In this document: positions 34,377 to 38,225 of the stretch, in pieces
How the letters are laid out: every line of letters begins with the position of its first letter
Position numbering within the stretch: position 1 is the stretch's first letter
Source: Bacillota bacterium
GTDB lineage: Bacteria; Bacillota; Clostridia; Lachnospirales; Lachnospiraceae
NCBI GenBank assembly: GCA_023663285.1
Contig: JAMPHT010000026.1
Span: 1-43,629 of the forward strand
Direction of reading: 5' to 3'
DNA length: 43,629 nucleotides
The notes under the pieces: model-generated
Databases searched by the model: none
Told to the model about the DNA's origin: nothing
Seen by the model: the letters and a program-made list of their open reading frames with translations, nothing else
Translations under genes and position numbers: made by a program

Positions 34377-35642
34377 ATGACGGTAGAATTGATCTGTGTG
34401 GGAACGGAGCTGCTGCTGGGTAATATCGTGAACACCAACGCGGCGTATCTTGCGGAAAAGTGTGCGGGACTGGGGCTTGCCTGTTATTTTCAGACAGTGG
34501 TAGGGGACAACAGGGAGCGTCTGAGCCTGGTGCTGAGGGCGGCGCTGGAACGGTCGGATGTGGTCATCCTGTCAGGGGGCTTAGGCCCCACTGAGGATGA
34601 TCTGACCAAGGAGGTGGCTGCCGAGGTCTGCGGAAAGCAGCTGATCATGCATAATCCCAGCAAAAAGGCCATCAAAAAATATTTTGAACAGCGGGGCGTC
34701 AAGCCCACGGACAATAATTGGAAGCAGGCCATGCTTCCTGAGGGCTGTATCGTGCTGGAGAACCATAACGGCACTGCCCCCGGCGCTATTATGGAGCTTA
34801 CAAACGCGAAGGTAGTGCTGCTTCCCGGACCGCCGAACGAGCTGTGCCCCATGTTTGAGGAAAGCGTCATGCCCTATCTGGCGGGGCTGACGGCTCATGT
34901 CATCTGCTCGCAGACAGTGAAGATCTGCGGCGTGGGGGAGAGTAAGGCGGAGACTATGGTGAAGGATCTGATCGACGCACAGACCAATCCCACCATAGCC
35001 ACCTATGCAAAGACAGGGGAAGTACATATCAGGGTCACTGCCGGCGCCGAGGACCAGAAAGCGGCAATGAAGCTGATCAAGCCGATGGTGAAGGAATTGA
35101 AGAATCGGTTTGGAAACGATATTTATTCCACCGAGGAGGATACCACGCTGGAGAAGGCGGTGGTAGACCTTCTGAAGGCAAACGGTCTCACAGTCACCTG
35201 TGCGGAGTCCTGTACCGGAGGGCTGCTCTCGGCCAGGCTGATCAATGTGCCGGGAGCGTCGGATATATACAAGATCGGCGTTATCACCTATTCCAACAAG
35301 GCCAAGCGCAGATTCTTAGGGGTGAAGAAGTCTACCCTTCAGAAGTACGGAGCCGTCAGCGGGCAGACGGCGGAGGAGATGGCAAAAGGGGCGGCTCTTT
35401 TGCTGAAAGCGGACGTGGCCGTGGCGGTGACCGGGCTGGCAGGTCCGGACGGGGGAACGGAAGAGATACCTGTGGGGCTTGTGTACATTGCCTGCAGCGT
35501 CAAGGGAAAGGTCACGGTGAAAAAGTATCAGTTTTCCGGCAGCCGCAGTAAAGTCAGGGATTCCGCCGTCTCGGCGGCGCTTTCGCTGCTGCGGGGCTGT
35601 ATCCTGGAATATTTCAGCAAGGTGACCTTTGGTAAGAAGTAG
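34377..35642 (+). CDS. cinA: CinA family protein (competence/damage-inducible; nicotinamide-nucleotide amidase)
   Basis: 421 residues. The N-terminal MoaB/MogA-like domain has ICVGTELLLGNIVNTNA and SGGLGPTEDDLTKE. The C-terminal amidase domain has VTCAESCTGGLLSARL and AVTGLAGPDGGTEEIPVG, with the catalytic serine in ESCTGG. The enzyme deamidates NMN for NAD salvage and is often encoded beside recA. ACGAGGAG lies just before the ATG. In many Clostridia recA follows directly; here the REC-synthetase gene is inserted between them, 16 bases after cinA. Confidence 0.95.
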   Translation: MTVELICVGTELLLGNIVNTNAAYLAEKCAGLGLACYFQTVVGDNRERLSLVLRAALERSDVVILSGGLGPTEDDLTKEVAAEVCGKQLIMHNPSKKAIKKYFEQRGVKPTDNNWKQAMLPEGCIVLENHNGTAPGAIMELTNAKVVLLPGPPNELCPMFEESVMPYLAGLTAHVICSQTVKICGVGESKAETMVKDLIDAQTNPTIATYAKTGEVHIRVTAGAEDQKAAMKLIKPMVKELKNRFGNDIYSTEEDTTLEKAVVDLLKANGLTVTCAESCTGGLLSARLINVPGASDIYKIGVITYSNKAKRRFLGVKKSTLQKYGAVSGQTAEEMAKGAALLLKADVAVAVTGLAGPDGGTEEIPVGLVYIACSVKGKVTVKKYQFSGSRSKVRDSAVSAALSLLRGCILEYFSKVTFGKK

Positions 35643-35657
35643 GATGGACTGACAGAT

Positions 35658-36731
35658 ATGCAAAAGATTTTGGTAGTGGATGATGAGGAAACAAACCGCG
35701 AGTTACTGCGGGCAATACTGGAAGATTGTTATACGGTGGTGACGGTGGAGGACGGAGAGAAGGCACTGCAGAGGCTGCGGGAATATCATAAGGAAACGGC
35801 GGCGGTACTTCTGGACCTGCAGATGCCGAATACAGACGGATTCGCGGTGATAGCGGAGTTGAAAAGGAATGGCTGGATCGACAGGATCCCGGTACTCATC
35901 ATAAGCGCCGATAAAAATGTTACGATCGAGAGTCAGTGCTTTGAACAGGGGGTCTCCGACTTTATCCATAAGCCCTTTGAGCCTGCCATCGTCAGGAACA
36001 GAGTGAAAAGCTCCATTGATCTGTTCGACCGTAAGAACGGGCTGGAACAAAAGGTGGAGGAGCAGGCGGTAACGCTGGAGAGGCAGTCGCAGATCATCCA
36101 GCTGCAGGAAGAAAAGCTGAGCCAGGCAAAGCCCTTCAACAAGTTGATGCTGGAGTACCGTTCTGCGATCATGGAAGTGGAGACAAGGCTTAAGGTACTG
36201 AACGCGGTATTTTCCGAGGAATATAACAGAAACCCTTTTGAGTCCATCCGGAGCAGGCTGAAATCGCCGGAGAGCATTGCCAGGAAATTAGAGCGGAAGG
36301 GCTATCCCCTCACCCTGGGAAATATAAAGGAGTATGTGACGGATGTGGCGGGATTGCGGGTGATCTGCTCTTTCCCGGACGATATCTACCGGCTGGCGGA
36401 CCTGCTGATCGAGCAGGATGATATAATGCTTTTAAGGTCAAAGGATTATATAAAGACGCCTAAGCCCAACGGCTACCGAAGCCTACATCTGACTTTGAGC
36501 GTGCCCCTGTTTCTTCCCTACGAAAAGAAGTATGTGAAGGTGGAGGTACAGTTCCGCACCATTGCCATGGATTTTTGGGCAAGCCTAGAGCATAAGCTGA
36601 AATATAAGAAAGACGGTTTGGCGGATGCGGATGAGATCGAGCGGCAGCTGAAGGTATGCGCGGACTCCATCGAGGAGCTGGATTACCGGATGCAGGAGAT
36701 ACGGGATAAAATCTACGGCTCCGACCAATAA
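35658..36731 (+). CDS. Response regulator fused to a RelA/SpoT-type (p)ppGpp synthetase domain
   Basis: 357 residues. Residues 1-120 are a receiver domain with the full set: D8-D9, phospho-acceptor D53 in LLDLQMP, S83 and K105 in HKPFEP. A coiled coil follows (about 125-160). Residues ~165-357 match small alarmone synthetases of the RelQ/RelP type: RSRLKSPESIARKLERKG, D229 in DVAGLRV, YIKTPKPNGYRSLHL, E296 in VEVQFRT, and MDFWASLEHKLKYKK. Both the Mg-binding aspartate and the catalytic glutamate are present, so it could make pppGpp or ppGpp. Phosphorylation of D53 probably controls it, but no sensor kinase is encoded nearby. There is no hydrolase domain. It is placed between cinA and recA, with a weak ribosome site (AGGA). 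Confidence 0.88.
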   Translation: MQKILVVDDEETNRELLRAILEDCYTVVTVEDGEKALQRLREYHKETAAVLLDLQMPNTDGFAVIAELKRNGWIDRIPVLIISADKNVTIESQCFEQGVSDFIHKPFEPAIVRNRVKSSIDLFDRKNGLEQKVEEQAVTLERQSQIIQLQEEKLSQAKPFNKLMLEYRSAIMEVETRLKVLNAVFSEEYNRNPFESIRSRLKSPESIARKLERKGYPLTLGNIKEYVTDVAGLRVICSFPDDIYRLADLLIEQDDIMLLRSKDYIKTPKPNGYRSLHLTLSVPLFLPYEKKYVKVEVQFRTIAMDFWASLEHKLKYKKDGLADADEIERQLKVCADSIEELDYRMQEIRDKIYGSDQ

Positions 36732-37056
36732 TGAGAGGACGCCGTAATTATTCAGCCTGGCAAATGTGACGGCGTTAGGAGAGTATTGCCGCCTGCCGCA
36801 TGGAACGGGCAATCAGACCAATCCCACGGAGTCTGGCGACTCCGTGGGATTAGAATTTCTTCTCACACTTTTTACTTGCAGAAATATTCGTTCTATGTTA
36901 CACTTTCTTTGTCTGATACTTCGTGTATTTCTTATCTGTATCGGTATGTAGGGGCATTTCGCCATCTGTTTCAGAAAAATAATGAATAAAAAATGGAGGT
37001 GGATGCCTTTGAGGGAGTTTTAAAGGACTTTTATTGTAATAAAATACAAATTGTAA
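36732..37056. other. Intergenic region before recA with several hairpins
   Basis: No gene is seen. The first half holds ACGCCGT/ACGGCGT (36739-36745 with 36769-36775), ATTGCC/GGCAAT (36785-36790 with 36808-36813) and a strong 14-bp stem at 36820-36851, followed by AGAATTTCTTCTCACACT (36852-36869), the reverse complement of the end sequence of the element at 34081. The rest is AT-rich up to the recA promoter. Confidence 0.6.
36820..36851 (+). terminator. 14-bp perfect GC-rich hairpin after the REC-synthetase gene
   Basis: AATCCCACGGAGTC (36820-36833) and GACTCCGTGGGATT (36838-36851) pair perfectly around a TGGC loop. The following sequence (AGAATTTCTTCTC) is pyrimidine-rich but lacks an immediate U-run. 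It is the best candidate for the end of the cinA/REC-synthetase transcript. Confidence 0.55.
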
Positions 37057-37085
37057 TTGACAAATCAGAACAAATGTTTTATTCT
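37057..37085 (+). promoter_or_regulatory. recA promoter
   Basis: TTGACA at 37057-37062 and TATTCT at 37080-37085, spacer 17. An imperfect LexA-like site GAACAAATGTTT (37068-37079) fills the spacer. Confidence 0.7.
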
Positions 37086-37093
37086 TAAAAAGA

Positions 37094-37107
37094 AGAACAT
37101 TTGTTCT
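37094..37107 (+). promoter_or_regulatory. LexA (SOS) box of recA
   Basis: AGAACATTTGTTCT is a perfect palindrome that fits the Firmicute SOS consensus GAAC-N4-GTTC. It begins nine bases after the -10 element, so LexA bound here would block transcription start. Confidence 0.85.
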
Positions 37108-37127: not shown

Positions 37128-38225
37128 ATGGAAAAAGATGAAAAATTGAAAGCGTTAGATGCGGCAATCAGCCAGATCGAGAAGCAGTACGGAAAGGGAG
37201 CGGTCATGAAGCTGGGCGACCCTTCCGCGCAGATGAATGTAGAGACGATCCCCACCGGATCCTTAAGCCTTGATATTGCGCTGGGACTTGGGGGCATCCC
37301 CAAAGGGAGGATCGTGGAGATATACGGCCCGGAATCCAGCGGTAAGACCACCGTCACCCTGCATATGATCGCAGAGGTACAGAAGAGGGGCGGTATTGCA
37401 GGATTTATTGATGCGGAGCACGCCCTGGACCCGGTCTATGCGAAGAATATCGGCGTGGATATTGATAATCTGTACATTTCTCAGCCGGATAACGGCGAGC
37501 AGGCGCTGGAAATCACGGAGACCATGGTTCGCTCCGGCGCCATTGACATAGTCGTTGTGGACTCTGTGGCAGCTCTTGTGCCCAAGGCGGAGATCGACGG
37601 AGACATGGGAGACAGCCATGTGGGACTGCAGGCCAGGCTGATGTCCCAGGCTCTGCGGAAGTTGACCGCGGTGATCAGCAAGTCCAACTGCACGGTAGTG
37701 TTTATCAACCAGCTTCGTGAAAAAGTGGGTATAATGTTCGGAAATCCGGAGACGACTACCGGCGGTCGGGCGCTGAAGTTTTACTCTTCCGTGCGTCTGG
37801 ACGTGCGCCGGATCGAATCCCTGAAGCAGGGCGGCGAGGTCATCGGAAACCGCACCCGCGTGAAGGTGGTAAAGAATAAGATCGCCCCGCCCTTCAAGGA
37901 GGCGGAGTTTGACATTATGTTTGGCGAGGGTATTTCCAGAGAAGGAGATATTCTGGATCTGGCGGCGGAATTGAACATTGTGGTAAAGTCCGGCGCTTGG
38001 TATGCCTATGAAGGAAATAAGATCGGTCAGGGCCGGGAGAATGCAAAGCAGTATCTGAAGGATAACCCGCAGGTCTGTCAGGAGGTCAGCCAAAAGGTAA
38101 GAGAGCATTACGGCTTTGACGGTGCAAAGGCCAAGGAGGACGCAGCCGGAGGAAAGAAGCCCGCAGACGAGGGGGAGAAGGCAGCGTCGGAAACGGAAAA
38201 AACCTTGAAAAAGAAGGAGTCGTAA
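37128..38225 (+). CDS. recA: Recombinase RecA
   Basis: Strand-exchange recombinase and co-protease for LexA. 365 residues. Walker [11 protein letters not shown] (about residues 65-74), Walker [15 protein letters not shown], loop L1/L2 regions ([40 protein letters not shown]) are all intact. The C-terminal ~35 residues are a Lys/Glu/Ala-rich charged tail ([15 protein letters not shown]). ATG 37128 is used with AAAAAGGAG upstream; a longer frame from 37101 would start inside the SOS box. recX follows by 42 bases. Confidence 0.98.

What the first reader, a model, noticed from the sequence alone, without database searches (positions are those of the whole stretch)
35658..36731. Two-component receiver domain fused to a (p)ppGpp synthetase
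One 357-residue protein joins an apparently functional receiver (D8-D9, D53, S83, K105) through a coiled coil to a RelQ/RelP-like synthetase with D229 and E296 intact. This would put alarmone synthesis under direct phospho-signal control, instead of control by ribosome state or transcription alone. There is no hydrolase domain and no adjacent histidine kinase, so the kinase must be elsewhere. It is inserted between cinA and recA, genes that are often adjacent.
Basis: partly seen in the sequence, partly recalled or inferred. Interest (0 to 1): 0.85.

Follow-up and report, generated by a model that had tools for sequence, protein, structure and literature searches.

The report
Phosphorelay receiver fused to alarmone synthetase
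Some bacteria of the Lachnospiraceae carry a single protein in which the on/off receiver of a sensory relay is joined to an enzyme that looks able to make the stress signal (p)ppGpp, which would let an outside cue switch the growth-arrest alarm directly.

Summary
Window 35658-36731 (+) encodes 357 aa: an intact receiver (REC), a coiled coil and a RelP-type small alarmone synthetase (SAS) with its catalytic residues. It is not a one-off: 37 distinct REC-SAS genes were aligned, all with D9, D53, D229 and E296, and their synthetase parts form one clade. Spread is patchy: 14 of 101 genomes of the window's genus, 9 of 299 of its family, only the window in 391 of its class (E<=1e-66).

This is an output-domain swap. 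(2) In one relative (L048) REC-SAS starts 7 nt after a PAS hybrid histidine kinase; full-length orthologs of that kinase occur in 7 of 9 REC-SAS+ against 13 of 290 REC-SAS- genomes (family), 12 of 14 against 18 of 87 (genus), not shown independent of phylogeny.

Best reading: a phosphorelay-gated RelP. Catalysis and sign of control are untested.

The parts
35658..36731 (+). REC-SAS gene: receiver, coiled coil, RelP-type alarmone synthetase; 357 aa
   Evidence: 36 further distinct orthologs aligned
35658..36011 (+). Receiver (REC) domain, residues 1-118, phospho-acceptor D53 (codon 35814-35816)
   Evidence: Pfam Response_reg 4-116, 82.7 bits; D9 and D53 in 37 of 37
36012..36128 (+). Coiled-coil linker, residues 119-157, continuous with REC helix alpha5; fusion junction near residue 157
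   Evidence: AF2 helix 109-189; heptad pattern and no indel in 35 of 36; local alignments with full-length REC-HD-GYP-type proteins end at median residue 155-159 for nine of ten of them
36129..36728 (+). RelP-type (p)ppGpp synthetase domain, residues 158-357; catalytic D229 and E296
   Evidence: Pfam RelA_SpoT 199-319, 113.2 bits; S. aureus RelP 6ewz E 4.4e-50, Foldseek rmsd 1.2 A to 6ewz_A
34377..35642 (+). cinA, upstream neighbour; its stop lies 15 nt before the REC-SAS start, so co-transcription is likely (inference)
   Evidence: PRK00549 531.8 bits; sequence
36820..36851 (+). Terminator-like hairpin (14 pairs) between REC-SAS and recA
   Evidence: consensus scan only; 4 such sites found, 3.1 expected by shuffles
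37128..38225 (+). recA, downstream neighbour, with a promoter-like site at 37057-37085
   Evidence: TIGR02012 578.3 bits; (2 promoter-like sites found, 2.6 expected)

Best explanation
REC-SAS is an orphan response regulator whose output is alarmone synthesis. It arose once, when the receiver and coiled coil of a REC-HD-GYP-type (c-di-GMP phosphodiesterase-like) regulator were joined in frame to a RelP-type synthetase. Inferred mechanism: a PAS hybrid kinase (G000:C26 in the window's genome) autophosphorylates and passes phosphate through its own receivers and a stand-alone Hpt protein (G000:C56) to D53. The phosphorylated receivers pair and turn the coiled coil. That movement runs into helix alpha1 of the synthetase, which in RelQ contributes to the central cleft of the tetramer, and changes synthetase activity; I favour activation. 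Shown: architecture, residue conservation, selection, single clade, junction, kinase adjacency in one genome, kinase co-occurrence by counts. Inferred: phosphorylation, relay route, activation, the product (p)ppGpp.
For: Both domains over Pfam cut-offs in P0001 and matched in 26 of 26 members of A1. ATP, Mg and guanosine-site residues of SaRelP (K80, S84, K88, R91, D107, Y151, E174, H190; PMC5794853, passages) map to K202, S206, K210, R213, D229, Y273, E296, H312 and are kept in at least 34 of 37. REC-SAS synthetase parts: one clade, 37 of 37 rows, SH-aLRT 97, quick tree. REC plus linker: in 36 genomes the best non-REC-SAS matches (16 at E<=1e-40) are 45-51% identical over residues 1-157; 5 of the 16 were Pfam-scanned and 5 of 5 are REC plus HD_5/HD. 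Full-length local alignments of 37 REC-SAS with ten REC-HD-GYP-type proteins end at median residue 155-159 for nine and 173 for L003; those with three stand-alone SAS start at residues 127-157. An Hpt-like family lies by these regulators in 7 of 8 loci; 5 of 5 scanned are Hpt. Hybrid kinase 7 nt upstream in L048. Full-length ortholog (71-86%) in 7 of 9 REC-SAS+ against 13 of 290 REC-SAS- genomes (family sample) and 12 of 14 against 18 of 87 (genus sample) (Fisher 6.5e-8 and 4.4e-6). Own ortholog G000:C26 is PAS-HisKA-HATPase-REC-REC. A stand-alone Hpt (open frame under 200 aa) in 20 of 21 REC-SAS+ genomes (no REC-SAS- genomes were searched as control).
Against: No biochemistry. The kinase is adjacent only in L048. 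G111 and G642 lack a match over 61%, and G188 and G708 show only a partial match (74-75% over about 258 residues); the copy in G001 has one in-frame TAG. 31 REC-SAS- genomes in the two samples have the kinase, so it must serve something else too. The cut-offs would miss fragments in REC-SAS- genomes. The co-occurrence is not shown to be independent of phylogeny: on the recA tree only 1 independent pair lies on supported branches (6 on all branches). G689 shows no stand-alone Hpt. pTM 0.62 and a pLDDT dip at 141-160, with P159 at the junction, leave room for a kink rather than one rigid helix. Some local alignments with REC-HD-GYP-type proteins run past the junction, to residue 282 at most. The REC tree supports the REC-SAS clade only at 75 and warns of long branches.
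Confidence: 0.66

Rival explanations
1. The receiver works by phosphorylation, but phosphorylation switches the synthetase off: RelP-type enzymes are intrinsically active, so the fusion would be active at rest and silenced on signal.
For: SaRelP has an ordered G-loop and is active without an allosteric activator (PMC5794853, passages); the G-loop proline is kept (P268, 37 of 37).
Against: Most known enzymatic response regulators are switched on by phosphorylation (recalled). A constitutively active synthetase would be costly (inference). Nothing computed here decides the sign.
Confidence: 0.25
2. The receiver is a dimerisation or docking module that is not phosphorylated; the synthetase is controlled by expression, as RelP is elsewhere.
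For: RelP in S. aureus and B. subtilis is under transcriptional two-component control (PMC10117726, passages). By motif scan of the flanks held (short in several loci), 35 of 37 copies have no kinase gene near; L048 has one adjacent and L054 one about 4 kb upstream.
Against: D9 and D53 in 37 of 37, S/T83 37 of 37, K105 36 of 37; purifying selection on REC; kinase adjacency in L048 and co-occurrence.
Confidence: 0.12
3. The kinase link is a by-product of shared ancestry or niche; another kinase feeds REC-SAS.
For: 31 REC-SAS- genomes also carry the kinase; the phylogeny-aware test has no power; the kinase has no conserved neighbours in 16 further loci.
Against: 7-nt adjacency in L048; in the sample with nearly one genome per genus 7 of 9 against 13 of 290; a 60% relative of the same kinase stands at the head of the kinase-Hpt-FapA-REC-HD-GYP gene row in L235.
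Confidence: 0.3
4. The synthetase makes another product, such as pGpp, (pp)pApp or a tRNA modification, as toxic SAS enzymes do.
For: PADLOC candidate family PDC-S33 matches residues 142-308 (72.7 bits). Some SAS enzymes make pGpp (PMC7591505, passages).
Against: Closest solved relatives are RelP; no conserved neighbour that could be an antitoxin.
Confidence: 0.1

Closest known systems
RelP / SasA / YwaC (SAS2) of Bacillota
   Same: Synthetase fold and catalytic residues; G-loop proline; no hydrolase domain; best PDB and Foldseek matches (6ewz, 6fgx, 6fgk).
   Different: No receiver: chains of 210-237 aa in the PDB; the two-component control reported is on transcription (VraRS, WalKR; PMC10117726), not in the enzyme itself.
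REC-HD-GYP-type response regulators of the same family (L223, L226, L228, L230, L237)
   Same: REC and coiled coil 45-51% identical to the window's over residues 1-157, same register.
   Different: Output is an HD domain (HD_5/HD in Pfam; HD-GYP by motif), not an alarmone synthetase.
RelZ (MS_RHII-RSD) of Mycobacterium smegmatis
   Same: SAS domain fused to a second domain (PMC7591505, passages).
   Different: The partner is RNase HII, not a signalling receiver.
RelQ / SasB / YjbM (SAS1)
   Same: Homologous synthetase.
   Different: pppGpp binding in RelQ moves F42, T44 and N148 (PMC5794853); here S196, R198 and D305 stand at these places (mapped by hand).
PleD and other REC-GGDEF regulators
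   Same: A receiver drives synthesis of a nucleotide second messenger (analogy, recalled); PleD is the best non-SAS PDB match, through its receiver.
   Different: Different enzyme and messenger.

Membership tests
Small alarmone synthetase, RelP type | RelA_SpoT domain over the curated cut-off, no HD hydrolase | tested here: met
   113.2 bits against 27; no HD match
Small alarmone synthetase, RelP type | ATP-binding and catalytic residues of SaRelP | tested here: met
   All present in P0001; each in at least 34 of 37 copies
Small alarmone synthetase, RelP type | Closer to RelP than RelQ; RelQ pppGpp-site residues replaced | tested here: met
   E 4.4e-50 against 1.2e-35; F42, T44, N148 replaced; the G-loop proline does not discriminate in this set
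Small alarmone synthetase, RelP type | Single-domain protein | tested here: not met
   357 aa with an N-terminal receiver; so a fused variant, not a plain RelP
Small alarmone synthetase, RelP type | Homotetramer and (p)ppGpp synthesis | not testable with these tools
   needs protein
Response regulator | REC domain with acidic pocket, phospho-acceptor D, T/S and K | tested here: met
   82.7 bits; D8, D9, D53, S83, K105
Response regulator | Paired kinase gene | tested here: inconclusive
   none in the window by motif; 7 nt away in L048; co-occurrence by counts
Response regulator | Phosphorylation changes output | not testable with these tools
   needs protein
REC-HD-GYP response regulator | HD-GYP output domain | tested here: not met
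   no HD match in P0001; REC and linker alone are shared
toxSAS toxin-antitoxin | Adjacent conserved antitoxin gene | tested here: not met
   no neighbour family in more than 3 of 27 loci, several with flanks of 1.5 kb or less

The most novel reading that the evidence does not exclude
A dedicated phosphorelay (PAS hybrid kinase, stand-alone Hpt, REC-SAS) switches (p)ppGpp synthesis directly. It evolved by exchanging a c-di-GMP-degrading output domain for an alarmone synthetase on the same receiver and coiled coil, so that one sensory route was re-wired from one second messenger to another.
Probability: 0.45. Interest if true: 0.85.

Novelty: new variant of a known kind. Interest (0 to 1): 0.72.

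Why it matters
Alarmone synthesis is known to answer starved ribosomes, transcription, and binding of alarmones, RNA or partner proteins (partly recalled). A receiver built into the enzyme would let two-component sensing set (p)ppGpp without new transcription, and would give a natural, tunable tool for making (p)ppGpp on demand. The output swap also offers a clear natural case of a sensory module moved between two nucleotide second messengers, with a candidate kinase and Hpt to test.

Tried and rejected
Assembly or chance fusion: rejected, 37 distinct full-length copies aligned. RelQ-type allostery: RelQ residues replaced. Mobile or phage cargo: no full-length copy among plasmid, phage or viral-contig matches. 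Conserved neighbours of REC-SAS: none in more than 3 of 27 loci, two of which are the same gene held twice (L015, L046). REC-SAS replacing stand-alone RelP: 2 of 14 against about 27 of 87 have a stand-alone RelP-like gene (by hand, boundary fuzzy), Fisher p 0.34. REC-SAS excluding the 42-51% REC-HD-GYP class: 8 of 21 against 9 of 15 (by hand), p 0.31. Kinase co-occurrence on a recA tree: 27 of 30 genomes had recA (G678, G689, G718 did not), G708 was counted as kinase-bearing, too few independent pairs. G-loop proline as a marker: in 31 of 31 stand-alone SAS too. The junction: the HD rows were cut at 165 residues and the query at 157, so those two cannot show where similarity ends; one search repeats it with full-length proteins. 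First dN/dS pass for L148 was misaligned and was redone; the L151 synthetase value could not be computed. Dropped rows: L015 (same as L046) and L118 (same genome as L155); the G642 and G689 copies were counted but not aligned. Partial or frame-broken matches L059, L063 and L081 were not followed. One search kept 80 of 587 relatives, so its 18 full-length of 80 is not a census. An earlier count said 8 nt for the L048 gap; it is 7.

Full report
What is there. The ORF at 35658-36731 (+) is 357 codons from ATG to TAA. Pfam places a receiver at residues 4-116 and a RelA_SpoT synthetase domain at 199-319, both far over their cut-offs, and no other family at E<=0.001. The start lies 15 nt behind the cinA stop. 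A terminator-like hairpin at 36820-36851 and a promoter-like site at 37057-37085 lie between it and recA (consensus matches, about as many as shuffles give).

It is a real family. A scan of genome contigs kept the best 80 of 587 relatives, of which 18 are full length. Whole-genome searches found full-length copies in 9 of 299 genomes of the family (nearly one per genus), 14 of 101 of the genus, 3 of 392 of the order sample (E<=1e-85) and only the window itself in 391 of the class sample (E<=1e-66, so a distant cousin could be missed). Phyla outside the window's class were not searched with genomes. Of the 18 named records 10 are titled Lachnospiraceae and one is Petralouisia muris, of that family; the other titles name Hungatella, Clostridium, Clostridiaceae, Clostridia or no family. 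The Clostridium-titled one (L046) is the same gene as L015 from the window's own family. No full-length copy was found on plasmids, phages or viral contigs. I aligned 37 distinct copies: D9, D53, F102 and S/T83 37 of 37, K105 36 of 37; of the synthetase residues K202, S206, K210, D229, P268, Y273 and E296 37 of 37, H312 36 of 37, R213 34 of 37. Pfam finds both domains in 26 of 26 members of alignment A1. Against the 94% identical ortholog dN/dS is 0.05 for REC, 0.06 for the linker and 0.03 for the synthetase; against the 80% one 0.13, 0.15 and 0.04; over all six orthologs tried 0.03-0.23, one value not computable. So the receiver is kept by selection, not carried along.

Which synthetase. By sequence the C-terminal part is nearest to S. 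aureus RelP (6ewz, E 4.4e-50) and B. subtilis YwaC (3.3e-48), then RelQ/YjbM (1.2e-35); by structure it fits 6ewz_A at 1.2 A. PMC5794853 (passages read) lists SaRelP K80, S84, K88, R91, D107, Y151, E174 and H190 for ATP, Mg and guanosine binding; they map to residues present here. The RelQ residues reported to move with allosteric pppGpp (F42, T44, N148) correspond to S196, R198 and D305. So this is a RelP-type enzyme without the RelQ switch. The own genome also has a stand-alone SAS (C3, 45% identical) and a match in a 794-residue frame (C52) that I take to be the long Rel.

Where the receiver came from. I searched 36 genomes with REC plus linker (residues 1-157). After the REC-SAS proteins themselves come 16 matches at E<=1e-40, 45-51% identical, in open frames of 367-403 aa. 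Five were scanned and all five are REC plus HD_5/HD; the name HD-GYP rests on the motif seen in the sequence. With full-length proteins on both sides, local alignments of 37 REC-SAS with nine such proteins end at median residue 155-159 (range 149-282), and with the own-genome paralog L003 at 173; alignments with the three nearest stand-alone SAS start at residues 127-157. In one search identity to stand-alone SAS is 0.49-0.99 per ten-residue block from 161 on, apart from one block (321-330, 0.38). These three SAS (L056-L058) have no receiver in frame or upstream; in L056 a gene that looks like a KdpE-type regulator lies downstream on the other strand (by eye). The SAS tree puts all 37 REC-SAS in one clade (SH-aLRT 97, quick method). 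The REC tree also gives one clade with the HD-GYP-type receivers alongside, but weakly (75 and 82, few rows, long-branch warnings). I read this as an output-domain swap with one origin.

Linker. AlphaFold2 predicts one helix 109-189 that joins REC alpha5 to synthetase alpha1 (mean pLDDT 91.9, pTM 0.62, dip to 82 and 77 at 141-160; P159 at the junction may kink it). Residues 133, 140, 147 and 154 are hydrophobic in all or nearly all copies, and 35 of 36 relatives have no indel in 109-189; L148 lacks 4 residues. A length fixed in this way suits mechanical coupling better than a loose tether. In RelQ residues of alpha1 help bind pppGpp in the central cleft (PMC5794853 figure legend), which is why I propose the coiled coil as the route of control; this step is inference.

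Which kinase. REC-SAS has no conserved neighbours. By motif scan of the flanks held, 35 of 37 copies have no kinase gene near; L054 has one about 4 kb upstream. In L048 REC-SAS starts 7 nt after a 1047-residue hybrid kinase with PAS, HisKA, HATPase and two REC domains. The kinase and REC part is 60% identical to the hybrid kinase of L235, which stands at the head of a gene row kinase-Hpt-FapA-REC-HD-GYP (FapA by clustering with the protein whose part was scanned). Full-length orthologs (71-86%, apart from the next class at 65% or less) occur in 7 of 9 REC-SAS+ and 13 of 290 REC-SAS- genomes of the family sample, and in 12 of 14 against 18 of 87 in the genus (counts by hand from the tables, tests). 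The window's genome has one at C26, 73% identical, with the same domains. These are counts of related genomes; on a recA tree only one independent pair lies on supported branches, so the test has no power. The kinase has no conserved neighbours in 16 further loci. Stand-alone Hpt frames under 200 aa occur in 20 of 21 REC-SAS+ genomes (no REC-SAS- control, so this shows availability, not association). In the window's genome the only one found is at C56, between a histidine kinase and the REC-HD-GYP-type protein that is the nearest receiver paralog, in a cluster with a scanned CheA-like kinase and genes that look like cheB, cheR and cheY (by eye).

Position. In the window and two near relatives (G699, G666) the gene sits between cinA and recA, with other genes added in those two. 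Of 27 genus genomes with recA found, 16 have cinA within 1.5 kb upstream of recA and no REC-SAS there.

Literature. Full-text searches of the held PMC library showed no paper whose listing speaks of a receiver fused to an alarmone synthetase; listings were cut (for example 20 of 30, 15 of 18, 8 of 29), and I judged by title and abstract start. I read passages only of PMC3153485 (RSH survey; its one 'response regulator' hit is in a reference title), PMC5794853, PMC10117726, PMC7591505, PMC6416229, PMC6667448, PMC1183210 and PMC3018481. Subscription journals and preprints are mostly not held, so absence from print is not shown.

Verdict. A true and conserved architecture, most likely a phosphorelay-gated RelP. 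Catalysis, phosphorylation, and whether phosphate turns it on or off are open.

Noticed in passing
L167:2811-4463 (G183:C4): A glycosyltransferase family 8 domain fused in front of an SAS domain (550 aa); seen once.
   Followed up: partly
L017:1149-2600 (G006:C70): An SAS domain followed by a GDSL/SGNH hydrolase domain (483 aa) in a 67% complete genome; seen once.
   Followed up: partly
window 37095-37106: GAACATTTGTTC just upstream of recA, an exact match to GAACNNNNGTTC, the form of a Gram-positive LexA box (recalled); the only one in the window.
   Followed up: no
G000:C56 (L239): Cluster with a CheA-like kinase, genes that look like cheB/cheR/cheY, a histidine kinase, an Hpt and two REC-HD proteins.
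   Followed up: partly
L158:5182-6426: A nickel-insertion (Ni_insertion, LarC-type) gene lies between cinA and REC-SAS in the 94% ortholog, on the other strand; this gap seems a place of gene turnover.
   Followed up: no
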